From contig CANLIE010000004.1 in NCBI GenBank assembly GCA_947491225.1, positions 62,001-126,000 of the forward strand: 64,000 nucleotides of DNA. The letters run 5' to 3'. Below the pieces are notes generated by a model. That model was not told the DNA's origin. It did not search any database and worked only from the letters and a program-made list of their open reading frames with translations. This document shows, one piece after another, positions 1 through 18,306 of this stretch (its first letter is position 1; each line of letters starts with the position of its first letter). The DNA comes from an uncultured Cellulophaga sp. GTDB taxonomy: Bacteria; Bacteroidota; Bacteroidia; Flavobacteriales; Flavobacteriaceae. Position numbers and translations under genes: made by a program.

Positions 1-1524
1 GTTCTCTTACAAATTTACATTGGTAGTAAAAAGAGTATTTTTGTATTAAAAACTGGGCAACTTATAGACGCCAAACTTATTTTAGGTTACTACAAACATT
101 TATTGCGTTTGCCACAACGCTTTTTTGACACTATGCAAATTGGTGAAATAACCTCTAGAATTAGTGATGCCGTAAAAATAAGGGCTTTTATAAACAATGT
201 TGCCATAGATATGCTCGTAAACATTTTTATTGTAATATTTTCTTTTAGTCTTATGTTTACGTACTATTGGAAACTGGCCTTGGTAATTTTATTGGTAATT
301 CCTTTTTACTTGGGCATCTACTTTTTAATGAATTATTTTAATAAAAAAGTAGAACGTAAGTTAATGGAAGATGCTGCTGAATTGCAAACACAATTGGTAG
401 AAAGTATTACACATATTAGAACAGTCAAGGAATTTGGCATAGAGGATTTTTCTAATATTAAAACTGAAAACAGATTTGTGAAATTATTGTTTACAACCTA
501 TAAATCTGGTTTAAATGGTGTTTTTTCTGGAGTATCTACTCAATTTTTAGCTTCTATTTTTACCATTATTTTACTATGGATAGGCTCTGGTTATGTACTA
601 GATGGAGAAATAACTACAGGAGAGCTATTTTCTTTTTACGCCCTTATAAGTTATTTTACGTCACCTGTTGCTTCTTTAATTGGAATGAACAAAACCATAC
701 AAAATGCATTAATTGCAGCAGATAGGCTTTTTGAAATAATGGATCTAGAGCGTGAAGAAACAGAAAATAAAATTGAACTTAAAAAAGAATACTTGGGAGA
801 TATTGTCTTTGAAAATGTATCTTTTAGATATGGTTCCAGAACCCAAGTTTTTGAAAATTTTAGCGCAACTCTTAAAAAAGGGCAAACAACAGCAATTGTA
901 GGGGAAAGTGGTAGCGGAAAAACAACTTTAATAGCATTGCTTCAAAACTTATACCCAATAAAAGAAGGGAAAATTTACGTTGGCGATTATGATTTAAAAC
1001 ATATTCATTACAAAAGTCTTAGAAAATTAATTGGTGTTATTCCACAGCAATTAAACCTCTTTTCCGGTACAATTATAGAAAATATTGCATTAGGTCAAGA
1101 TTTCCCAGATATGCAACGTATCATAGAATTATCTAACAAATTAGGAATAACAACATTTGTAGAAAAATTACCTAACGGTTTTGAAACCCAAGCAGGAGAA
1201 AATGGCGCAATGCTTTCTGGAGGTCAAAAACAACGCATATCCATAGCAAGGGCATTATACAAAAACCCAGAAATATTATTAATGGATGAGGCGACTTCTG
1301 CTTTAGATTCACATTCTGAAACTATTGTAAAACAAGTCATAGATGAATTTAAAGCTCAAGGAAAAACAATTATAGTAATTGCTCATAGACTAAGTACCAT
1401 TGCAAATGCTGATGCTATTCTAGTTTTAAAAGATGGTGTAATTGTGGAACAAGGAAACCACAATCAATTACTTAAAAACAAGAAAGAATATTACAGTTTA
1501 TGGAATAAACAGAGTTTAGGATAG
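1..1524 (+). CDS. Peptide/bacteriocin-type ABC exporter, C-terminal part (cut by window edge)
   Basis: The frame is open from base 1, so the true start lies outside the window; the TTG at 103 is only the first possible start codon inside it. The visible part has several hydrophobic membrane-spanning segments (encoded about 190-720) followed by a complete nucleotide-binding domain with Walker A GESGSGKTT (near 903), signature LSGGQKQR (near 1213), Walker B ILLMDEATSALD (near 1275) and the IAHR switch histidine (near 1378). This is the exporter half-transporter architecture of the peptidase-domain (C39) family that cleaves double-glycine leaders while exporting peptides through the inner membrane. 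The C39 domain itself would be upstream and cannot be seen, so its presence is inferred. A GG-leader-like ORF lies 0.8 kb downstream on the same strand, which supports the assignment. It could instead be a plain lipid/toxin exporter. Confidence 0.85.
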   Translation, partial: VLLQIYIGSKKSIFVLKTGQLIDAKLILGYYKHLLRLPQRFFDTMQIGEITSRISDAVKIRAFINNVAIDMLVNIFIVIFSFSLMFTYYWKLALVILLVIPFYLGIYFLMNYFNKKVERKLMEDAAELQTQLVESITHIRTVKEFGIEDFSNIKTENRFVKLLFTTYKSGLNGVFSGVSTQFLASIFTIILLWIGSGYVLDGEITTGELFSFYALISYFTSPVASLIGMNKTIQNALIAADRLFEIMDLEREETENKIELKKEYLGDIVFENVSFRYGSRTQVFENFSATLKKGQTTAIVGESGSGKTTLIALLQNLYPIKEGKIYVGDYDLKHIHYKSLRKLIGVIPQQLNLFSGTIIENIALGQDFPDMQRIIELSNKLGITTFVEKLPNGFETQAGENGAMLSGGQKQRISIARALYKNPEILLMDEATSALDSHSETIVKQVIDEFKAQGKTIIVIAHRLSTIANADAILVLKDGVIVEQGNHNQLLKNKKEYYSLWNKQSLG

Positions 1525-1633: not shown

Positions 1634-1903
1634 GACTTAAACCTTGTTGATTGGACTTTTGCCTCTAACCAAAAAACAATTGGAATTACATATTTACACT
1701 CTTATTATAGGAGGAAAAACACGTAAATTCTATTTTCATGATTGTCATCTTATAAAATGGGATAATAACTTTTCTCCAACAGGCAATCAACCAATGAGTG
1801 AAACACTTGACACAGAGCTACAGCTGGCGTAGAAGATTCTAATTCTCAAGGTGTTTATAAGAGAACTACTTACCCTAAACAAGAAACACACAAAAAACAG
1901 TAA
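1634..1903 (+). pseudogene. Remnant of a TssD/Hcp-like type VI tube protein
   Basis: No intact frame exists here, but three frames read consecutively give a coherent C-terminal half of the Bacteroidetes TssD family. The first segment (from 1634) reads DLNLVDWTFASNQKT and ends near YYRR, matching the W..S....G...FYRR region. After a shift comes RKFYFHDCHLIKWDNNFSPT followed by GNQPMSE, matching the 'AYCVxYxExFxxxGxxPM' region. After another shift comes AGVEDSNSQGVYKR, ending at the stop at 1901. The N-terminal half is absent. The assignment rests on remembered family motifs. No other type VI gene is visible, so this is probably an orphan relic. Confidence 0.5.
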
Positions 1904-2168: not shown

Positions 2169-2350
2169 ATAACACCTCACTAAACTTTACATACAAACTA
2201 ACTATTCTATTTAAAAAAAAGTAAGAAAAAACTTTGCAGTATTAAAAAAAAAAAAAACATCTTTACTGCATCAAAATATTCGTGAAACCATTTTGAAAAA
2301 ATTATTGTATAACTTGGTTTGCAAATTGCAGAACTGTTAAATTTAAAATT

Positions 2351-2428
2351 ATGAATTTAGAAAATTTAGGAGTTCAAGAAATGAACAAAAAAGAAATTAT
2401 TTGTGCAAATGGAGGGAGATATATTTGA
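2351..2428 (+). CDS. Short GG-leader peptide ORF (possibly the 5' end of a frameshifted gene)
   Basis: ATG at 2351 opens 25 codons reading MNLENLGVQEMNKKEIICAN, then GGRYI and a stop. The pattern of acidic/hydrophobic helix (LxxLGVQEMxxxEI) ending in Gly-Gly is the classical double-glycine leader of peptides processed by C39-type exporters, and such an exporter (partial) lies upstream. Only three residues follow the GG, too few for a mature peptide. The next frame (+1) runs straight on from the same place for more than 220 codons. Removing one G from the GGG at 2414-2416 would fuse the two into one GG-leader protein of about 240 residues. So this is either a leader-only ORF or the severed front of a longer secreted protein. 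Confidence 0.6.
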   Translation: MNLENLGVQEMNKKEIICANGGRYI

Positions 2429-3077
2429 TGGTGTGACTTGGTGGGAAGCTAGTGGTAAAACCATTGGTGTTGGAGCGTTTAGTGAAAGTTCAAGACCAGA
2501 ATTAAATGAAGATCTAAAAAAGAAGAGTAGTTTTTTAGGAATACAAAATGAGGAGATAGGGAGAGGAAAGGTAAATGTAAATCCTTCTAACGACTTCCAT
2601 AGTGAGCCTGCTTTTATAGATATGGCAAGTTCTCGATATGTATGCCCTTTGTGTGCTCTAAAAGGTGTTAATTTGGCAAGTAATACGGATGAGAAGAATT
2701 TTATTTCAAGAATTACTAAGGAGTTTGATAGAGTATTTGCGGTAGATTCTGATTTTTCGGTAAAAATTAGAGCCTCTGCAGAAATTCTTTTTCCTCCTAA
2801 CAAAATTATGCCACTTTTAGATAACTTTCAAAGGATTTTGATGACTGGTACAGGAATGAAGAGCATAGATGCTACACTAGGTACTTCAGATTACGATTTA
2901 CTTAGAGTTATTTTTGCGATACAAGCAAATGACCAAGCAGCTACACAAAAGGCAATGCAAACATTGGCAAATAATAAACCTGATTATTTCAGACAACTGC
3001 TTATGGCAAGAACCCTGGAAGCGGATATTCCGGATAAAATGAGGGTGTTAACACCTATGTTTTGTTCTGTAAAATAG
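2409..3077 (+). CDS. Hypothetical protein, probable cargo part of a GG-leader protein
   Basis: The protein of about 223 residues has no family I recognise. The N-terminal third is Gly/Ser/acidic and soluble (EGDIFDGVTWWEASGKTIG). A Cys pair occurs as YVCPLCALKG, and the C-terminal half looks helical, ending in DKMRVLTPMFCSVK. The ATG at 2409 lacks a convincing ribosome-binding site and sits inside the preceding short GG-leader ORF; a GTG at 2403 is an alternative start. This fits a protein whose real start is the leader at 2351, separated by one base. A TPR gene follows six bases downstream, so the two are probably co-transcribed. A short echo of its C-terminus (ILTPTLCSL) recurs at 4142-4177 before the second TPR gene, suggesting the pair was once duplicated. 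Confidence 0.55.
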   Translation: MEGDIFDGVTWWEASGKTIGVGAFSESSRPELNEDLKKKSSFLGIQNEEIGRGKVNVNPSNDFHSEPAFIDMASSRYVCPLCALKGVNLASNTDEKNFISRITKEFDRVFAVDSDFSVKIRASAEILFPPNKIMPLLDNFQRILMTGTGMKSIDATLGTSDYDLLRVIFAIQANDQAATQKAMQTLANNKPDYFRQLLMARTLEADIPDKMRVLTPMFCSVK

Positions 3078-3083
3078 AGAGAA

Positions 3084-4097
3084 ATGGATAAGAAAAGAAT
3101 TTTAGATTGGAGAGATGAAATAGAAAAAATTTACTTGAATTCAGGTAGTGAAATTGCTATTAATCAATCTATTAAATCTGTTAACGTGCCTTTGGATATT
3201 AGAAAGTTGTCCATTGCATTATTATTTTCAAGGGTAGAGAAATTTGAAGATTCATACAAAGCCCTTAAAGAGGTTGATAGAGAAAAAATAAAGGAATGGG
3301 ATAGACAGTTTGAGTTGGATGCTCTTGCTGTAGAAGTAAACTATAAAATCTCTATTAAGGAATACCAAGAAGCATTGTTCGGTATAGAAAAAGCCCTTGT
3401 TATTCAGCCAGAAAATATAAATTTTTTCACAAAAAAATTATTCATATTCCATAAAATTCAACCTAATAAAGTGAAGAATCTATTCTTAGATGAAATTAAA
3501 AATAGACCTTCTAATGATCTTTTATTAGCGGCATATGGTAATTACCTTCTTCTTGAAGGTGATTATAAAAAAGCAGAAGAAATAGCAAGAAAGGCATTGA
3601 CGATTAATGAAAATAATATTGAAGCAAATGAAATATTAGGATTGTTGTTTTTTGAAGGCAAAGAGTATGATCAAGCAACTTTTTATTTAAGAAAGGTAAT
3701 TGCTTTAAACCCAAATATGATACTAACCCAAGAGATATTATGTGAAGTGGTTGTATTTTCAGAAGGTTTGGACGCTGGTGAAAGGCAATGTCATTATGCA
3801 CTAGGTTTCTTACCAGAAAATAGTAAAATACATAGTTTATTAGCTTGTGTAATTTTGGAGAAAGGGGACGATGCTCATCATGCTTTGATGCATGCAAAAA
3901 AAGGGGTATTATATAATCCGGATGCCTATTCTTTGTTTGCACAGGCTTATTCATATACGGAACTAAATCAATTATTCTTAGCAGATGAAGCATTAAAAAA
4001 GTGCTTAAAGTTTTCTGATGCACCGAAAAGTGCATATAGATTAAGAAGCATATTGGATGAAAAATTAGGAATTAATGAATTTAAAAACAAGGGTTGA
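3084..4097 (+). CDS. TPR (tetratricopeptide repeat) protein 1
   Basis: A soluble all-helical protein of 337 residues without signal peptide. TPR-like helices are evident from about residue 40, with clear motifs such as EYQEALFGIEKALVIQPENI (about 96-115), GDYKKAEEIARKALTINENN and EYDQATFYLRKVIALNPN (about 160-215). TPR domains bind partner proteins or peptides. It starts six bases after the Cys-containing hypothetical gene, so translation is probably coupled. It is laid out like the second TPR gene at 4190: similar length, similar N-terminal helix with W and EI/GIENI.., and repeats at equivalent places. A chaperone or immunity-like partner role for the neighbouring GG-leader protein is conceivable but is inference from position only. 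Confidence 0.75.
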   Translation: MDKKRILDWRDEIEKIYLNSGSEIAINQSIKSVNVPLDIRKLSIALLFSRVEKFEDSYKALKEVDREKIKEWDRQFELDALAVEVNYKISIKEYQEALFGIEKALVIQPENINFFTKKLFIFHKIQPNKVKNLFLDEIKNRPSNDLLLAAYGNYLLLEGDYKKAEEIARKALTINENNIEANEILGLLFFEGKEYDQATFYLRKVIALNPNMILTQEILCEVVVFSEGLDAGERQCHYALGFLPENSKIHSLLACVILEKGDDAHHALMHAKKGVLYNPDAYSLFAQAYSYTELNQLFLADEALKKCLKFSDAPKSAYRLRSILDEKLGINEFKNKG

Positions 4098-4141
4098 TGC
4101 AGGTGGTTAACGATGAAAAAAACTTCTATATTTTTTAAGAC

Positions 4142-4177
4142 ATGAAAATTTTAACACCAACATTGTGTAGTTTATAA
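4142..4177 (+). other. C-terminal echo of the 2409-3077 protein (MKILTPTLCSL)
   Basis: The 11-codon frame MKILTPTLCSL resembles the C-terminus KMRVLTPMFCSVK of the gene at 2409-3077, and each precedes a TPR gene by a few bases. It appears to be the last surviving piece of a second copy of the gene pair. No other part of the copy is recognisable between 4098 and 4141. Confidence 0.4.
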
Positions 4178-4189
4178 AATTATTAAAGA

Positions 4190-5185
4190 ATGAATTCAAT
4201 AGAATATTGGAAAGAAGGTATAGAAAATATTTTTCAGCTACACGGGCCTGAAATGGCTCTACAGGCGATTAGTGTAGATAATGAAGAAAATAGAGAGATA
4301 CCTTATGCTATAAGAGAAATTGCCAAAGCAAGTATCTTTTATAGAGGAGCGAACTATGAGGAGGCAGAAAAAATTATTAATACTATTTCCAATGAAATAA
4401 AAGAATTAGTATATCAAGCAGAATGGCAAGTAATTGCGATTGGAGTACATGTTTTTTATAAGAGATATCAGGAAGCATTGAAGGTATTAGAAGAGTCTAT
4501 TAAAGTAAACCCTAATAATTTGGATTTGTATAATCAACTTGTATATGTTCAGGATAAACTGGGGATTAAAAGTTATTCAATAAGTTATCCAGAGTTATTG
4601 AAAAAATTTAATGACCACTATGAAGTGAAAATTGAATATGCAAGTTACTTGTTTTACCAAAAAGAAAATGATAAAGCCAAAGAAATAGCATTAGAAGTGA
4701 TCGAAAAAGATCCTAATAATGTAAAAGCTTTGGATATTTTGGGATATATCGCCTTAGAAAATATGGAAGACCAAAAAGCTTATGATTACTTAATCAAGTC
4801 ATCAGAAATATGGCCTTTTAATAAAAAAAGATTACAGTCTCTAGCGAATATTGCTTTATTGAATAGAGACAAAGAAGGAGAAGAAAAAGCCTATCGATAT
4901 GCATTACAATTTTATAAAACAGATGGAGAATTTAATTTAAAACTGCTGACAATATTGTTAAACACCCCTAATCGAGATACAAATGAGGTTATAGAATTAG
5001 GGAATAAAGTTTTACAATATTTACCAAATAATGTAAGGTCATATTTTTTATGTGCTTATGCGTATTACTTGGGAGGTAAAATACAAGACGCAAATAACAT
5101 ACTAAAAGAATGCTATGCTTTTAAAGAAATCCCCCAAGGAGTATATGAGCTTCAGGAAAAAATAAATACCATTTTAAAAAAATAG
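4190..5185 (+). CDS. TPR protein 2
   Basis: A protein of 331 residues, soluble and helical, with TPR motifs such as RYQEALKVLEESIKVNPNNL (about 94-113) and ENDKAKEIALEVIEKDPNNV (about 163-182), then DQKAYDYLIKSSEIWPFNK. Overall size, N-terminal layout and repeat positions mirror the TPR gene at 3084, so the two look like diverged paralogues from a tandem duplication. The following small gene starts three bases after its stop, which indicates one transcript. No catalytic motif is present; it is a protein-binding scaffold of unknown partner. Confidence 0.75.
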   Translation: MNSIEYWKEGIENIFQLHGPEMALQAISVDNEENREIPYAIREIAKASIFYRGANYEEAEKIINTISNEIKELVYQAEWQVIAIGVHVFYKRYQEALKVLEESIKVNPNNLDLYNQLVYVQDKLGIKSYSISYPELLKKFNDHYEVKIEYASYLFYQKENDKAKEIALEVIEKDPNNVKALDILGYIALENMEDQKAYDYLIKSSEIWPFNKKRLQSLANIALLNRDKEGEEKAYRYALQFYKTDGEFNLKLLTILLNTPNRDTNEVIELGNKVLQYLPNNVRSYFLCAYAYYLGGKIQDANNILKECYAFKEIPQGVYELQEKINTILKK

Positions 5186-5187
5186 TT

Positions 5188-5481
5188 ATGGATATCAAAA
5201 AGGAAATATGGTTTAATAGCGAAGACAAAAACTTTTTTCTAATTCCTGTAGATATTCAGCTATCAAAAGGGGAATATAGGATTGAACAATTTGATAAAAA
5301 TGAAAAATTTTTAGCTAAAAAAGAACTGATTCCTTTTCTAGCTATAGAAAAAAATATACTTGAAAAACTTAAAACAGATTATAAGCAAGCCATAGAAAAA
5401 ACAAAAGAAAGTTTAGTGCACCTTAATCAGTTTGCGTTTATGACTGGTCAGATTACGGAAGAGAGTATAAAATATGGTTAA
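5188..5481 (+). CDS. Small hypothetical protein (97 aa)
   Basis: A soluble, charged protein with a predicted beta-rich first half (IWFNSEDKNFFLIPVDIQLS) and a helical second half (EKLKTDYKQAIEKTKESL). It has no signal peptide, membrane segment or motif I recognise. It begins three bases after the TPR 2 stop, so it is almost certainly co-transcribed and probably works with that protein. Confidence 0.55.
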   Translation: MDIKKEIWFNSEDKNFFLIPVDIQLSKGEYRIEQFDKNEKFLAKKELIPFLAIEKNILEKLKTDYKQAIEKTKESLVHLNQFAFMTGQITEESIKYG

Positions 5482-5542
5482 AACAGAAACAGATATCTTT
5501 TAGAATGATTATTATCTAAGGAACTGATAGAGTATACAAATA

Positions 5543-6013
5543 ATGAGCATAAACATAGAAATTTTTCCATCTGTAAAAGAAGCCTTAAAAAGGGATGATA
5601 TAAGTAACAATCTTTATAAGCTTTACGAAGTAAGTTCAAATAAATTATTAAAAAAAGAAGATATTCTTGATGTAGATAAAGCTTATAGAATAAAGCATAA
5701 AGATACTACTATAGCCTTTCTTAATTTTTTTCAAACGGAACCTGAATTAGATACAATAGAAGTTTTATACGGGTATTTGGGAAAAGGAGAACAAATGAAA
5801 AATATAGAAAAAATATACAAGGACTGGATGGAAGTAGGACTCTCTGTTTCTATTGAATTTAAAGTGAATCAAAAAAATATCAAAAAATATCTGAATATAG
5901 TTTTTGAAATTGTAGAAAAAATGAAAGGTGTCATTTGTATAAAAGAAACATTTGATGAAATAGATAACGGTTTTTATACACTTGATGGTTTTAAAAAAAT
6001 AATTGAATCATAG
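5543..6013 (+). CDS. Hypothetical protein (156 aa)
   Basis: A soluble mixed alpha/beta protein, rich in Lys and Glu, with no signal peptide. It has MSINIEIFPSVKEALK at the N-terminus and a C-terminal half resembling a small ferredoxin-like fold (LSVSIEFKVNQKNIKKYLNI). No family is recognised. Size and place at the end of an exporter/GG-leader/TPR island would fit an immunity or accessory protein, but this rests on context only. Confidence 0.5.
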   Translation: MSINIEIFPSVKEALKRDDISNNLYKLYEVSSNKLLKKEDILDVDKAYRIKHKDTTIAFLNFFQTEPELDTIEVLYGYLGKGEQMKNIEKIYKDWMEVGLSVSIEFKVNQKNIKKYLNIVFEIVEKMKGVICIKETFDEIDNGFYTLDGFKKIIES

Positions 6014-6043
6014 TAATATAGCAAAATCAATAAATTTTAAATT

Positions 6044-6264
6044 ATGAATACGGATAGATTATTTATGAGATTAGGTATTATGCGTACAAAAAGTTTTAAG
6101 ACTAAAATCGAATCCTAAAGTAAAAAGGTTCAACCTTTTATGGCTATAGTAAGGATTTCTTATTTGATGAAGACGATACAAAAGTAGTTTTTATACGGTG
6201 TGAAGAAACAAGATTTCCAAATGATACAGAAATAGATATTAATCCAGAGCAAACACATCTATAA
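6044..6264 (+). pseudogene. Coding debris, unidentified
   Basis: A 24-codon frame (MNTDRLFMRLGIMRTKSFKT then stop) is followed in another frame by 46 open codons (6124-6264) reading GSTFYGYSKDFLFDEDDTKV and on to a stop. The composition looks like former coding sequence broken by a frameshift. No family is recognised. Confidence 0.3.
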
Positions 6265-6342
6265 AAATAAAAACCTTAACAATCACTTGTTTAACAGTTA
6301 ATCATTTTTTATATTACACTGATAATCAATACTTAATCTATT

Positions 6343-6467
6343 TTGGAAGCAACTAAGAATTTCAAGTCTATATTCAACCAAATAGAAGACCCTAGAAGCG
6401 ATATTAAAAACTTCACAAGTTAAATGACATGCTTCTTAGAGGAACTATAAGGATTATTTATGATTGA
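6343..6467 (+). mobile_element. ISAs1/H-repeat type transposase N-terminal relic
   Basis: Frame 1 reads LEATKNFKSIFNQIEDPRSD then IKNFTS and a stop; a second frame continues LNDMLLRGTIRIIYD. The F..IxDPR... start followed by a hydrophobic L.D.L. segment is the N-terminus of ISAs1-family (H-repeat associated) transposases. Everything after about 40 residues is gone, and no terminal inverted repeats are seen. Confidence 0.5.
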
Positions 6468-6503
6468 AAAAGAAACATTTGAACCTAAAATAACATATTA
6501 ATA

Positions 6504-7264: not shown

Positions 7265-7406
7265 GAAAATTTGATTGTTATATTGCTTTTGGGATCTGAT
7301 TTTTGTTTTTAAAAGCCAAATCAAAAGATTTGGCGATTTTGTAAATAAACAACCATCTTTCGATTAAACATTAATCGCCCTATTCGCTATATATAGTGTT
7401 ATAAGC
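7265..7406. repeat. Palindrome-rich intergenic repeat element
   Basis: The stretch carries three perfect short inverted repeats: GCCAAATC-AAAA-GATTTGGC, CGATTAA-ACA-TTAATCG, and CTATATATAG. It ends in ATAGTGTTATAAGC at 7393-7406, whose TGTTATAAGC half is the reverse complement of GCTTATAACA at 8689. The ATAGTGTTATA core recurs in direct orientation at 8777-8787. From memory, the GCCAAATC/GATTTGGC hairpin next to a TTATAACA end is common in accessory regions of Flavobacteriaceae. Confidence 0.5.
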
Positions 7407-8649
7407 TTTCTTTCACAATAATAATATCACCATAATCCCCACCAGATAGCGTTGGTAAGCTAATTGAACTTTCAGTATTTGTCTCTATATTATATTTTAC
7501 AATTGTACCATCAATAATACTTGAAGAAGTATTTGATGAGATTCCATAAATACTTTTAGTTTCCGTTTCGTAGATTAAACTTTTAGGTAGGACAGAAGCA
7601 GGAAAGTCTGTCTTAAAATTATATGTATTTATAATACTCCCATCTGTTTTGTTTACTTCCAGTATAGATTTATTTGTAAAATCATCTTTGATTACAAATA
7701 GTCGATTGTTAGCAATAATAATATCACCATAATCCCCACCAGATAGCGTTGGTAAGCTAATTGAACTTTCAGTATTTGTCTCTATATTATATTTTACAAT
7801 TGTACCATCAATAATACTTGAAGAAGTATTTGATGAGATTCCATAAATACTTTTAGTTTCCGTTTCGTAGATTAAACTTTTAGGTAGGACAGAAGCAGGA
7901 AAGTCTGTCTTAAAATTATATGTATTTATAATACTCCCATCTGTTTTGTTTACTTCCAGTATAGATTTATTTGTAAAATCATCTTTGATTACAAATAGTC
8001 GATTGTTAGCAATAATAATATCACCATAATCCCCACCAGATAGTGTTGGTAAGATAATTGAACTTTCAGTATTTGTCTCTATATTATATTTTACAATTGT
8101 ACCATCAATAATACTTGAAGAAGTATTTGATGAGATTCCATAAATACTTTTAGTTTCCGTTTCGTAGATTAAACTTTTAGGTAGGACAGAAGCAGGAAAG
8201 TCTGTCTTAAAATTATATGTATTTATAATACTTCCATCTGTTTTGTTTACTTCCAGTATAGATTTATTTGTAAAATCATCTCTTATTACGAACATTTTGT
8301 CTATTACCTCTGCTTCTAGAAGAATTTCAATAGTACCAACACTTATTTCTTCGTTATTATAGACAAGAACGATTTCTCCAGAAGTAGCATTTTCAGGAAT
8401 TTCGACTTTAAGTTGAGTTGGAGTTATTTCTATAATTGGTCCTTCAATTTCATTAAACTTAACTAAATAAGTTTCGTTTGAATTGAAGTTTTTTCCATTG
8501 ATAATTATAATATCACCTATACTGGCTCTATTTGTTGAAATATTTTCAATTGTAGGTTTGAGTATTTGCTTATTAGAATTATTATTATCATCACTTGAAC
8601 AGCTAAGAATTAAAAAACAAATAATAATAATTAAGTGTATTTTTTTCAT
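7399..8649 (-). CDS. Lipoprotein with IPT/TIG domain and three 99-residue tandem repeats
   Basis: The start at 8649 (MKKIHLIIIICFLILSCSSD) is preferred over an upstream ATG at 8673 because it gives a compact lipoprotein signal with lipobox LILSC and an Asp/Asn-rich linker typical of Bacteroidetes surface lipoproteins. An IPT/TIG-like immunoglobulin fold follows (PTIENISTNRASIGDIIIIN to about residue 110). Then come three nearly identical 99-residue units, each with FVIKDDFTNKSILEV, GSIINTYNFKTDF and SLIYETETKSIYGISS motifs, resembling beta-propeller blades of the kind found in ligand-binding surface proteins. The last unit ends abruptly in KESL. The gene sits alone between palindromic repeats. 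Binding specificity cannot be told from sequence. Confidence 0.75.
   Translation of the reverse strand: MKKIHLIIIICFLILSCSSDDNNNSNKQILKPTIENISTNRASIGDIIIINGKNFNSNETYLVKFNEIEGPIIEITPTQLKVEIPENATSGEIVLVYNNEEISVGTIEILLEAEVIDKMFVIRDDFTNKSILEVNKTDGSIINTYNFKTDFPASVLPKSLIYETETKSIYGISSNTSSSIIDGTIVKYNIETNTESSIILPTLSGGDYGDIIIANNRLFVIKDDFTNKSILEVNKTDGSIINTYNFKTDFPASVLPKSLIYETETKSIYGISSNTSSSIIDGTIVKYNIETNTESSISLPTLSGGDYGDIIIANNRLFVIKDDFTNKSILEVNKTDGSIINTYNFKTDFPASVLPKSLIYETETKSIYGISSNTSSSIIDGTIVKYNIETNTESSISLPTLSGGDYGDIIIVKESL
7402..8295 (-). repeat. Three tandem copies of a 297-bp unit
   Basis: The period is exactly 297 bases (AGATAG anchors at 7444, 7741 and 8038). The copies differ at only a few positions, for example Arg/Lys at the RDD/KDD site and Ile/Ser in SIILPT/SISLPT. 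Near-identity including synonymous sites means recent expansion or gene conversion. Copy number may vary between strains or be collapsed in assemblies. Confidence 0.95.
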
Positions 8650-8688
8650 TTTATAGTTATTTTTTATTGTCAAGGGTTTTTAGTAATT

Positions 8689-8790: not shown

Positions 8791-8998
8791 GTTATATTTA
8801 GTTTGTTTGTCCAAAGCTAAGGAATTTTTCTTTTCCATCCAATGGGACAAATAAAACGGTGTTTCAAAAAGCACCCAAAATAACAGCAACCCAAAACGTT
8901 TTTAATTGCCTATAGTCCATTACATATTAATAAGAGCATAAATTAGTTTATATTATGTTTTAAAAATCCTTTTTTTAGGTTGTGAGAAGGGGAAATAA

Positions 8999-9190
8999 AA
9001 AAAGCATAGTCAAGAAGCTCAGGAATTGATTCGTTTTAGGGTAGCGGATTACCTAAAAGCTAAAAAAGGTACTCAAAAACAATGTGCTGAAATATTCGGG
9101 CTTACACAGACTGCTGTTAACAAGATTTGGGCAAAGTACAAGGTTGGAGGTAAAAAATCATTGAAGAATAAAAAGCGCGGAGTAAAACGG
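8999..9190 (+). mobile_element. IS630-type transposase N-terminal relic (HTH domain)
   Basis: The frame reads KHSQEAQELIRFRVADYLKA then KKGTQKQCAEIFGLTQTAVN and IWAKYKVGGKKSLKNKKRG, which is the helix-turn-helix plus 'GG..L..KKRG' linker found at the N-terminus of IS630-family transposases. No DDE catalytic part of IS630 follows. The frame runs without a stop into the next relic. Confidence 0.6.
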
Positions 9191-9535
9191 GCTTATTTCA
9201 AAAGGATAGAGAATTATTCCTCAAAGGAATTGAATAAGATATTTGTTAGCCATATCTCAGGTAATGCTAAAATAACAACCGATAAATGGAAAGGCTATCT
9301 GCCATAAAAAAAGAAGTACGACATCACTCAGCTTAAGAGTAATGTTTCTGACTTTTTTGAAATAAATACGATAATTCACCAGCTAAAAGCAGGGCTTAGA
9401 AGCGTATATTCTTGGATGGATGATTGTCACATTGAAAAATATCTAGATGAATATAGTTATTGATTAAACAGGTCTATTCACAAACAAACCATTTAATACA
9501 CGGTAGAAATTGTCTTGAGAAACTCGTTCGCTTAA
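9186..9535 (+). mobile_element. IS1595 (ISXO2-like) transposase C-terminal relic
   Basis: Immediately after KKRG the frame becomes KRAYFKRIENYSSKELNKIF then HISGNAKITTDKWKGYLP, the ISXO2-like catalytic core with a conserved TDxWKGY. A stop/shift follows at about 9304, then KKYDITQLKS, NTIIHQLKAGLRSVYSW and KYLDEYSY/LNRS in shifted frames, matching the C-terminal HxxK...LDEFxxRxNR region. Two or more lesions make it non-functional. Confidence 0.65.
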
Positions 9536-9782: not shown

Positions 9783-10745
9783 ATGCCTAAAACTATTACA
9801 ATACTTCTCTCAATTATTTCCTTATTTGGATGTAATAATGTAATTAAAAATAATGATGCTGAAATAATAGTTGAAGACGGAACCGCTATTGATTCAGTAA
9901 TTATCGAAACAGAAATAAAATCTGAAAACTTAGATACATCGTCAAATAATTATTGGGTAGGATTCTTCAATCCTGATAAAGAGGTTGACTTACAAGGCAA
10001 ATACATTGCTGCAGATGAAGCATTATATTGGGGAAGAAGAAATAAAATTAGTATTTCAATTGACAAAATACTTGGAGATTCTATCATCGGGCACAGTATT
10101 GTAGCAGGTAACCACAGGCCTTTTTATGGTAAAATCCAACCGACTGATGAAGGGAAAAAATACATAGTTAGAGAACCAGGTGATGATAAATACGATGGAC
10201 AATTTACTTTTGAGATTATAAATAATCGTTTGATTGGAGTTTGGGACGCATATAAAAGTATTGAAATTCCTAAACGAGAATATAAACTAGACCAGATGTC
10301 ATATAAATATAATCCAGACATTATGTTGGAAAGAGCCCGTCGATATGGAAATTGGGACAAATTCATAGACCATGGAACTCAAATTGAAATTTATGATGAA
10401 GGAACTCCAGATGAACAAGTCTATGAATGGGTTAAAAGAGAATATGCATCTTCTACTGAAAAAATATACGAGATAAACGCTTCTAACACAGAGCTCACAA
10501 AAGAAGACGTTGAAAACTTAACCAATAGTGATTTAGTAGTAATAAGAAATACGATTTATGCTCGTCATGGTTATTCTTTCAAGAATAGACCTTTACGAGT
10601 ATTCTTTGATGCTCAAGATTGGTACATCCCAGTTCATGCTGATATAAAGCAGGATTTTACGGAAATTGAAAAAAAGAATATCCAACTTCTACTACGATAT
10701 GAAAAAAATGCTAAAGAGTATTATGATTATTTCGGTCGGGGTTAG
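9783..10745 (+). CDS. YARHG-domain lipoprotein
   Basis: The start at 9783 gives MPKTITILLSIISLFGCNNV, a lipoprotein signal with Cys at residue 17; an in-frame TTG at 9651 is inside the repeat element and is rejected. The middle region is beta-rich (YWGRRNKISISIDKILGDSI). The C-terminus carries a YARHG domain: NTIYARHGYSFKNRPLRVFF followed by W..Y.P and a long terminal helix, a domain of extracytoplasmic bacterial proteins thought to bind cell-wall or carbohydrate ligands. The next gene starts inside its 3' end (47-base overlap), so the two are co-translated. The exact role is unknown. Confidence 0.75.
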   Translation: MPKTITILLSIISLFGCNNVIKNNDAEIIVEDGTAIDSVIIETEIKSENLDTSSNNYWVGFFNPDKEVDLQGKYIAADEALYWGRRNKISISIDKILGDSIIGHSIVAGNHRPFYGKIQPTDEGKKYIVREPGDDKYDGQFTFEIINNRLIGVWDAYKSIEIPKREYKLDQMSYKYNPDIMLERARRYGNWDKFIDHGTQIEIYDEGTPDEQVYEWVKREYASSTEKIYEINASNTELTKEDVENLTNSDLVVIRNTIYARHGYSFKNRPLRVFFDAQDWYIPVHADIKQDFTEIEKKNIQLLLRYEKNAKEYYDYFGRG

Positions 10746-11394
10746 TCTGCTCTTAAGTTGTTCTACCTCTCCTGAAACATCTGCTACAGATTCACTAATT
10801 CTATACGAGCAAGACTCAATATCGGTTCATCAAATTTTAGACTTTAACGATACGTTATGGACTGAAATAATTTTCAAAAACGATGGTGTATTTGAAAGTA
10901 TGGACTATGCAGATTCTAGCAATTTTATTGACCAAACAATTTACCCTTGTGCCCGTTGCTTTCTAAGACCTGAAGCAGCCAAAGTATTATTCGTAGCAAA
11001 GAGCATAGCTAAACTCAAAGGGATAAGCCTTATCTTGTTTGACTGTTATCGCCCTGCAATCTACCAGCAAAAAATGTTTGATATCGTGAAAGACGCTAGA
11101 TATGTAGCTGAACCAAAAAAAGAAGGTTCTATACATAACAAAGGTCTAGCTGTTGATTTAGCATTGATTGATTCATCAGGTAACATCCTAGATTTTGGTG
11201 GAGATTTTGATGATTTTTCTGAAAGGTCTCATCATTCATATGGCAGTTTAGACTCTTTGGCAAATTACAATACAATCCTTCTGAAAAGCATAATGACAGA
11301 AGCGGGCTTTACTTTTTATCCTTTTGAATGGTGGCATTATAGCTATCCCCATATTGATTATGACCAAGATGAATATATTTGGAATTGTAATTAA
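10699..11394 (+). CDS. VanX/DdpX-like D-Ala-D-Ala dipeptidase (peptidase M15D), lipoprotein
   Basis: The start at 10699 yields MKKMLKSIMIISVGVSLLLS with lipobox LLLSC; an in-frame ATG at 10666 would bury the signal and is less likely. The zinc site of M15 dipeptidases is present: SIHNKGLAVDLAL supplies the SxHxxGxAxD His and Asp ligands, and EWWHY supplies the catalytic Glu and third His. FDCYRPAIYQQ matches the family's conserved YRP segment. It probably hydrolyses D-Ala-D-Ala or muropeptide-derived dipeptides in the periplasm or on the envelope. About 232 residues is normal for the family. It overlaps both neighbours, forming a tightly coupled trio. Confidence 0.85.
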   Translation: MKKMLKSIMIISVGVSLLLSCSTSPETSATDSLILYEQDSISVHQILDFNDTLWTEIIFKNDGVFESMDYADSSNFIDQTIYPCARCFLRPEAAKVLFVAKSIAKLKGISLILFDCYRPAIYQQKMFDIVKDARYVAEPKKEGSIHNKGLAVDLALIDSSGNILDFGGDFDDFSERSHHSYGSLDSLANYNTILLKSIMTEAGFTFYPFEWWHYSYPHIDYDQDEYIWNCN

Positions 11395-16305: not shown

Positions 16306-16716
16306 CTGAATAAAGGCTACATAATTTTAAACATTGTGTACAAAAATGACAAGGTAATGATTATTCAGTTTAATTTTAGTAGTGCAAAATAAGATGTATA
16401 TTTAGATGAGTTATTATTAATTTTAAAAGAGGGTACTTATTAAATTACAAATACTGAATATTTTAAGTTTATAAAAATAAGTGACCACTAATGTTTTACA
16501 ACATTGTAAGACCAAATTTTGAAACAAATAAAAATGAATATTGTCTTTTAAAAATAGAAAATATTTTGAGCTAGACATTGGCTTTGTTTACATTAATAGC
16601 TTTTGCCATTGAAATTGTAGTTACTGTTGTCTTTTAAGAAAATAGCATACAAAGGATTTATATCTGGAGAATTTACAATAATTGACTAAAATCTAAGAAT
16701 TGAAACTTTATTTGTG

Positions 16717-16797
16717 TTAGGGATTGTAGTGAAAATCCTTTTTTATTTTTCTTAAAAAAGATTGAAACAAAAAGCCCGACCCTTGTGGTAACACCCA
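16717..16797 (+). other. Conserved-looking hairpin element before metK
   Basis: Pattern AGGGATTG ... AATCCTTTTTTA-loop-TAAAAAAGATTG ... AAAGCCCGACCC. A near-perfect stem (16734-16745 with 16753-16763) is flanked by purine-rich arms. From memory, similar sequences recur near gene ends in Bacteroidetes; the function is unknown. The rest of 16306-16825 holds no gene I can support, only A+T-rich sequence with short broken frames. Confidence 0.35.
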
Positions 16798-18204: not shown

Positions 18205-18306
18205 ATTTCAACTGAAATCTGTTTTAGCATTTTTTGTATTACTGAGTACCAGCATACGAGGTTGCAATCAGTCAAATCCTTCCTCTTAATTAAGACTGCA
18301 AAAGTA
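18205..18306 (-). promoter_or_regulatory. SAM-II-type riboswitch (long-loop variant) and promoter of metK
   Basis: Read on the minus strand, a -7 box TACTTTTG (18306-18299) is followed closely by GAGG (P1), GATTTGACTGATTGCAA, the closing CCTC, then CGT, an inserted hairpin GTAT-G-CTG-loop-CAG-TA-ATAC, AAAAAATGCTAAAACAG, and a small stem ATTTCA-GT-TGAAAT (18218-18205). The order GATTTxAC..TTGCAA / P1' / CGT..AAA..TGCTAAAA is the SAM-II consensus with its pseudoknot segment GCTAAAA. The extra hairpin in loop 3 corresponds to the long-loop SAM-II variants. It lies about 80 bases ahead of metK, as expected for product feedback. Confidence 0.8.

What the first reader, a model, noticed from the sequence alone, without database searches (positions are those of the whole stretch)
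2351..3077. A GG-leader protein that appears split by a single base, next to a peptide exporter
A 25-codon ORF ends in a textbook double-glycine leader (…EIICANGG) but has only three residues after it. The next reading frame continues from exactly that place for more than 220 codons. Dropping one G from the GGG at 2414-2416 joins them into one protein of about 240 residues with an export leader, next to a C39-type exporter-like gene. A leader on a protein that long, with a CPLC motif, would be an unusual cargo. The shift could be a sequencing error, a recent mutation or a programmed +1 event.
Basis: partly seen in the sequence, partly recalled or inferred. Interest (0 to 1): 0.65.

Follow-up and report, generated by a model that had tools for sequence, protein, structure and literature searches.

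The report
Copied export leader on unrelated gene
In a probable flavobacterium, a promoter-plus-export-tag module normally found in front of short antibacterial-like peptides has been copied in front of an unrelated longer gene, and a small length change at the tag's cutting site now separates tag from protein; it looks like a broken gene fusion rather than a new kind of secreted cargo.

Summary
A 25-codon ORF (2351-2428) carries a double-glycine (GG) leader, the next frame is open to 3077, and the gene ending at 1524 is a full C39-peptidase exporter (Pfam PF03412, E 3.9e-38) with an HlyD-type neighbour. Reading the contig left of the window changes the explanation. The leader is the fourth copy of a promoter-like/5'UTR/leader module; the other three, 5-7.5 kb to the left, start peptides of 52-77 aa. 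The window copy matches the first in 258 of 268 columns over about 2195-2460 and then stops; for the ~204 codons after it no relative was found. Against that copy the window is two bases shorter in the GGA tract at the cleavage site, which alone puts leader and body in different frames. Codon usage is gene-like from within the module on, so coding begins inside it. Best reading: duplication of the module made a chimera, since split by a small indel (mutation or, less likely, assembly error). Other leader-like ORFs found here and in six of nine related clusters are short, so a 200-residue cargo has no parallel. Nothing supports programmed frameshifting. Modest interest.

The parts
1..1524 (+). 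3' part of the peptidase-containing ABC exporter; the whole gene is G000:C4:61374-63524 (716 aa), its C39 domain lying left of the window
   Evidence: on L015:1501-3648: Peptidase_C39 E 3.9e-38, ABC_membrane 3e-46, ABC_tran 4.8e-32; HlyD-type gene just upstream (HlyD_3 E 4e-19)
1644..1832 (+). remnant of a TssD (Hcp, type VI secretion) gene in a broken-up stretch 1525-2190; left neighbour of the copied module, not part of it
   Evidence: TssD PF17642 E 2.9e-5, 24.4 bits, below the cut-off of 25.8; weakest of 11 TssD places in the genome; stops in all three + frames
2195..2460 (+). fourth copy (w4) of the promoter-like region, 5' UTR, GG leader and first 14 core codons of the peptide gene p1 (L003:6910-7143)
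   Evidence: 97% over 262 bases; 258 of 268 columns, homology ends at about 2460
2351..2428 (+). GG-leader ORF, 25 aa: leader of 22 residues and three residues out of frame
   Evidence: leader identical in amino acids to that of p3 (L003:9142-9300)
2411..2419 (+). shortened GGA tract at the cleavage site; two bases shorter than in p1
2403..3077 (+). open frame of 224 codons; the DNA up to about 2460 comes from the module, about 204 codons after it are an orphan body with a CPLC motif
   Evidence: no relative found
3084..4097 (+). TPR protein, 337 aa, 6 bases after the body's stop; perhaps the same transcript (inference)
   Evidence: TPR_2 E 1.9e-11; at E <= 1e-12 the only other match is its neighbour
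4190..5185 (+). second TPR protein, 331 aa, 26% identical to the first; perhaps the same transcript (inference)

Best explanation
The locus carries a small family of GG-leader, bacteriocin-like peptides with a C39 ABC exporter. Its members share a 5' module (promoter-like region, 5' UTR, leader) that has been copied in front of different coding sequence. In the window the module, with 14 core codons of p1, was copied downstream of the exporter and joined to an unrelated orphan gene (body) that stands before two TPR genes. This made, most likely in frame, a leader-body chimera. A two-base length change in the GGA tract at the cleavage site then separated the two. Now the leader ORF yields a useless 25-mer, and the body, if made at all, starts inside the module (ATG 2409, or GTG 2433 just after the leader's stop) and stays in the cell. 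Shown: the module copy, its edges, the frame relation to p1, the C39 exporter, coding character of the body frame. Inferred: that the chimera was once translated as one protein, that the indel is a real mutation, the present starts, and that p1-p3 are exported peptides.
For: Four copies of the module within 8 kb of one contig and nowhere else in the genome at E <= 0.001 (40 of 112 first-look candidates scored), with different right edges: p2 after about leader codon 12, p3 at the GG site, w4 14 codons past it. w4 keeps p1's core codons in the body frame with one synonymous change; one amino-acid change (Q to K) lies at the very edge. Segments 2415-2456, 2457-2621 and 2622-3074 score as coding in the body frame (0.79, 0.32, 0.15 bits per codon), so coding begins before the first internal ATG at 2622, i.e. 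in the module. The exporter has C39. Fourteen other leader-like ORFs at E <= 0.005 are 49-77 aa. Next to it, 1525-2190 holds a decayed TssD gene.
Against: The body frame has no stop, so if split it was split recently, or it is still translated from an internal start. That the chimera was ever in frame rests on one sister copy and 14 codons; an in-frame join has a one in three chance anyway. In the 30-codon windows at 2943 and 2988 another frame scores higher than the body frame. The indel could be an assembly error. No second strain was available.
Confidence: 0.58

Rival explanations
1. The body is an independent, leaderless cytoplasmic protein that works with the two TPR proteins; the module only supplies promoter and start region, and the leader ORF is a leftover short upstream ORF coupled to the body's start.
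For: Body frame open and mostly gene-like; TPR gene 6 bases downstream; starts in the body frame at GTG 2403, ATG 2409 and GTG 2433 (read).
Against: Codons 2415-2456 are core codons of p1 in p1's frame, hence not an N-terminus that belongs to the body; no homologue with a separate start was found.
Confidence: 0.2
2. Sequencing or assembly error: the real genome has leader and body in one frame and makes an intact chimera.
For: The tract is a short GGA repeat in one of several near-identical copies in a 366-contig draft, where copies could be mixed up; the body frame holds no stop.
Against: The difference from p1 is two bases and lies outside a long homopolymer; w4 has other private changes (one base more and one substitution in the 5' UTR, a synonymous change in the leader), so it is not a simple mix of copies. 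In the list of ORFs of 100 aa or more from 8.7 kb on I saw no obviously split gene, by eye only and without a test.
Confidence: 0.15
3. A native long cargo: the body is a true member of a GG-led protein family exported by this C39 system, with leader and body still expressed together.
For: Leader and exporter are real. The TM domains of PCAT1 give no specific binding region for cargo, so different cargo on one signal can be secreted (PMC6959990, passages).
Against: Homology to a short-peptide gene runs 14 codons past GG and then stops; no relatives found; other leader-like ORFs are 49-77 aa; the frames are split here.
Confidence: 0.05
4. Programmed +1 frameshifting at GGG_A joins leader and body.
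For: tRNA-Gly could in principle re-pair from GGG to GGA (recalled reasoning, no call).
Against: The following codon AGA is the commonest Arg codon here, 272 of 500 counted; no stop codon at the shift site; the RNA downstream does not fold unusually well (z -1.59 with 18 of 200 shuffles as good, and -0.24 with 73 of 200); no second copy of the site, and p1 is in frame without a shift.
Confidence: 0.02

Closest known systems
Gram-negative GG-leader peptide clusters (class II microcin / class IIb-like) with C39 ABC exporter and HlyD-type adaptor (class names recalled)
   Same: short ORFs with 22-23 residue GG leaders, HlyD-type gene, C39 exporter: p1-p3 and the ORF at L003:9334
   Different: w4 leads into an orphan sequence of about 204 codons instead of a short core, and is split from it
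Bacteroidetocins (PMC6671954, passages read)
   [quoted passage not shown] here leaders are 22-23 aa, the p1 and p3 cores have no cysteine and p2 has two, and there is an HlyD-type gene. Whether a TM protein or thiol oxidoreductase gene is present here was not tested
PCAT1 of Clostridium thermocellum (PMC6959990, passages read)
   Same: C39 domain reads the leader, and different cargo on one signal can be secreted
   Different: its cargo is put at about 9,000 and its cavity at about 15,000 cubic angstrom; a 200-residue body would be far larger (inference)

Membership tests
GG-leader peptide precursor of a C39 exporter | N-terminal leader ending in GG with conserved hydrophobic spacing | tested here: met
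   its leader equals that of p3, one of the nine leaders the profile was built from, so its score is by construction
GG-leader peptide precursor of a C39 exporter | exporter with C39 domain nearby | tested here: met
GG-leader peptide precursor of a C39 exporter | cargo in the same frame directly after GG | tested here: not met
   stop after three residues; as it stands w4 is not a working precursor
GG-leader peptide precursor of a C39 exporter | short core (tens of residues) | tested here: not met
   body about 204 codons past the homology; 14 other leader-like ORFs 49-77 aa in all
GG-leader peptide precursor of a C39 exporter | cleavage and export by the exporter | not testable with these tools
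   needs expression and mass spectrometry
class IIb (lactobin/cerein) bacteriocin, asked of the sister peptides | score over the curated cut-off of TIGR03949 | tested here: not met
   p2 17.6 and L003:9334 17.0 bits against 21.5; p1 and p3 no match at E <= 0.1
programmed frameshift gene | conserved slippery site with stimulating element | tested here: not met
   conservation could only be judged on the sister copies

The most novel reading that the evidence does not exclude
Promoter-plus-leader modules are copied as units in front of unrelated genes, a route by which a C39 exporter recruits new cargo, here even a 200-residue protein from a foreign operon; the window shows such a capture caught shortly after the event, with the GGA tract at the cleavage site acting as the point where the capture is undone.
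Probability: 0.15. Interest if true: 0.5.

Novelty: new variant of a known kind. Interest (0 to 1): 0.27.

Why it matters
The array gives a clear picture of how families of exported peptides with one leader and many cores may grow: the 5' module is copied with different right edges, before, at and after the cleavage site. The window copy shows that the same process can reach an unrelated long gene. As it stands the product is probably not exported, so the practical weight is small.

Tried and rejected
Relatives of the body were sought in the own genome (second match is only p1's module codons), in 119 relatives, 397 family, 395 phylum and 326 order genomes; each count includes the own genome and the draws may overlap. 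Also genome contigs and viral contigs, where the scan starts from six short patterns and reaches close relatives only; plasmids, phages, PDB sequences, Pfam (one match at E 0.068, below cut-off), NCBIfam, PHROGs, PADLOC. Genomes other than the own with a hit at the chosen limit: 2 of 119, 4 of 397, 4 of 395, 8 of 326. What I opened looks like chance, judged by eye: glycosyltransferase-like proteins (L011-L013); an FAD-oxidoreductase-like protein (L057) and frames with stops (L006, L014); frames antisense to a long polynucleotide-phosphorylase-like gene in four f11 loci (L005, L081, L082, L083). L058 is a weak match in an open frame of 176 codons, not explained further; for L059 and L060 my own tblastn did not bring the listed match back. 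L084, L085 and the hits in G924 and G861 were not opened.

Structure of the body from its single sequence: mean pLDDT 34.4, not usable, so no fold search was made. Neighbouring genes gave no shared gene order to work from: TPR1, TPR2 (51, 69), the 156-aa gene (27, 70), DNA 2180-6100 in plasmids (50). The 156-aa gene has one match in another genome (G086, E 7.5e-7, 29% over about 96 residues), which I did not follow. A T6SS effector origin of the body was considered because of the TssD remnant: nothing links the two. Rfam: two matches in the window, none near the site.

Papers: PMC6671954 (listing, passages 56), PMC6959990, PMC10986499, PMC3482391, PMC5524665 (48, 54, a reference-list passage): listings and passages only, no whole text; the last three gave nothing used here. 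Searches for long GG cargo or leader duplication listed nothing that I recognised as this from titles and abstract starts; that is no proof of absence.

Full report
What is there. The window is bases 62001-126000 of contig C4 of a 3.59 Mb, 366-contig draft. A Flavo-1 RNA suggests a flavobacterium; no call named the organism. ORF 2351-2428 reads MNLENLGVQEMNKKEIICANGGRYI; ORF 2403-3077 overlaps it in another frame. The exporter whose end is at 1524 was read whole from the contig: 716 residues with Peptidase_C39 (E 3.9e-38), ABC_membrane and ABC_tran; an HlyD-type gene precedes it.

The leader is a copy. Left of the HlyD-type gene lie three more ORFs with the same beginning: p1 (L003:6910-7143, 77 aa), p2 (8075-8257, 60 aa) and p3 (9142-9300, 52 aa), besides a short ORF with a different GG leader at 9334; their ATGs lie 7.4, 6.3 and 5.2 kb before that of the window copy. 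A DNA search of the own genome with the p1 module finds four places: p1 itself, window 2200-2460 at 97% over query bases 1-262, p3 at 97% over 1-218, p2 at 96% over 74-194 (40 of 112 first-look candidates were scored). Pairwise alignment gives 258 of 268 columns for the window copy against p1. The copies end at different points: p2 after about leader codon 12, p3 at GGAGG, the window copy 14 codons beyond GG. The smallest shared stretch, p2's, holds about 78 bases before the ATG. In all four copies these include TTTG-N18-TTGGTTTG, ending 28-29 bases before the ATG, which resembles the Bacteroidota promoter motif as I recall it; promoter function was not tested.

The frame. At the cleavage site p1 has GGAGGAGGAGAT and the window GGAGGGAGAT, two bases less. 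In p1 the leader frame runs on into GDIFDGVTWWEASG; the window keeps these 14 codons, with one synonymous change, in the frame of the 224-codon ORF. The frame difference between leader and body therefore lies at this tract alone. The window copy has few other private changes (one substitution and one extra base in the 5' UTR, one synonymous change in the leader), so the split belongs to a small number of recent changes, if it is real.

The body. After about 2460 no similarity to p1 is reported. Codon-usage scores against 26 long ORFs of the window (12,377 codons) are positive in the body frame for 2415-2456 (0.79 bits per codon), 2457-2621 (0.32) and 2622-3074 (0.15), and negative or near zero (at most 0.07) in the two other frames. 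Against this, 30-codon windows dip to or just below zero at 2583, 2628 and 2988, and at 2943 and 2988 another frame scores higher. The stretch before the first internal ATG at 2622 is thus coding, and the coding region must begin inside the copied module. No relative of the body was found in the searches listed under Tried and rejected; the weak hits that were opened look like unrelated genes or antisense frames, apart from L058, left unexplained. The gene is followed at 6 bases by a TPR gene and then a second, 26% identical one; among 119 genomes no other match to the first reached E 1e-12.

Comparison with relatives. Of 100 genomes, 17 including the own match the exporter's first 275 residues at E <= 1e-30; nine others than the own match at 48-84% identity, one of them (G003) broken by stops. 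I fetched 15-20 kb around each of the nine. A profile built from nine leaders, run on 2,696 ATG starts of 12 fetched stretches and the window, finds at E <= 0.005 fifteen distinct ORFs (five further rows, internal starts of the same ORFs, left out): the window's 25-mer and fourteen of 49-77 aa. Ten of the fourteen carry a leader that is in the profile, so their scores are by construction; four do not. Their lengths are no product of the profile. These hits occur in six of the nine related stretches; L040 and L046 have none and L045 only weak ones (E 0.31 and up). Rows of 199-486 aa appear only at E 2.2 and above. So no long cargo was seen. At DNA level, in the five of nine stretches compared (L038-L041, L046; blastn E 1e-8), only the exporter-HlyD part aligns, apart from stretches of 84-96 columns at the leaders in L038; this would fit a cluster that moves.

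Mechanism. p1-p3 look like unmodified bacteriocin-like peptides: short cores, a sub-threshold TIGR03949 match for p2 and for L003:9334, and an Rce1-like (CPBP) gene beside p1 (E 1.3e-21), a kind often found as immunity protein (recalled). No modifying enzyme was searched for. The C39 domain cuts after GG during export (PMC6959990, passages). In the window the module drives, at most, a leader 25-mer and, from an internal start, the body without a leader. Body and TPR genes may still be transcribed from the copied promoter (inference). A perfect 20-base palindrome ACTTACAAATATTTGTAAGT lies upstream of p1, beside an Rrf2-type regulator gene, and upstream of p3 (2 matches, chance mean 0.01), but no match with up to 3 mismatches lies in the window, so the copy would escape whatever binds there (inference).

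Verdict. A confirmed observation with a fairly ordinary main cause: duplication of a promoter-leader module made a chimeric gene, and a small indel at the cleavage site split it. Error and mutation cannot be told apart without reads. A long exported cargo and a programmed shift are both unlikely.

Noticed in passing
L003:6726-6745 and 8961-8980 (G000:C4:56726 and 58961): Perfect 20-base palindrome ACTTACAAATATTTGTAAGT upstream of p1 (between it and a divergent Rrf2-type regulator gene) and of p3; missing before the window copy. Candidate operator.
   Followed up: partly
7399-8673 (-): Lipoprotein-like gene (by eye) with three tandem 297-base repeats, the first two 100% identical, the third 95%: very recent duplication or an assembly effect.
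   Followed up: no
1525-2190 and 6014-6500: Stretches without an ORF of 100 aa on both sides of the body-TPR block, which look like broken genes; the first has a TssD (Hcp) piece. The genome has ten further TssD places, three of them in open frames of 558-600 codons.
   Followed up: partly
3084-6013: Two related TPR genes, then a 97-aa and a 156-aa gene with at best weak family matches (PHROGs E 0.015 and 2.1e-4) and hardly any relatives; possibly an acquired block.
   Followed up: partly
16712-16785 (+) and 18214-18291 (-): Flavo-1 RNA, and a SAM-II riboswitch before a gene that looks by eye like S-adenosylmethionine synthetase.
   Followed up: no
L046 (G003:C23) 10073-10791: In a same-genus genome the exporter is broken into pieces with stops.
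   Followed up: no
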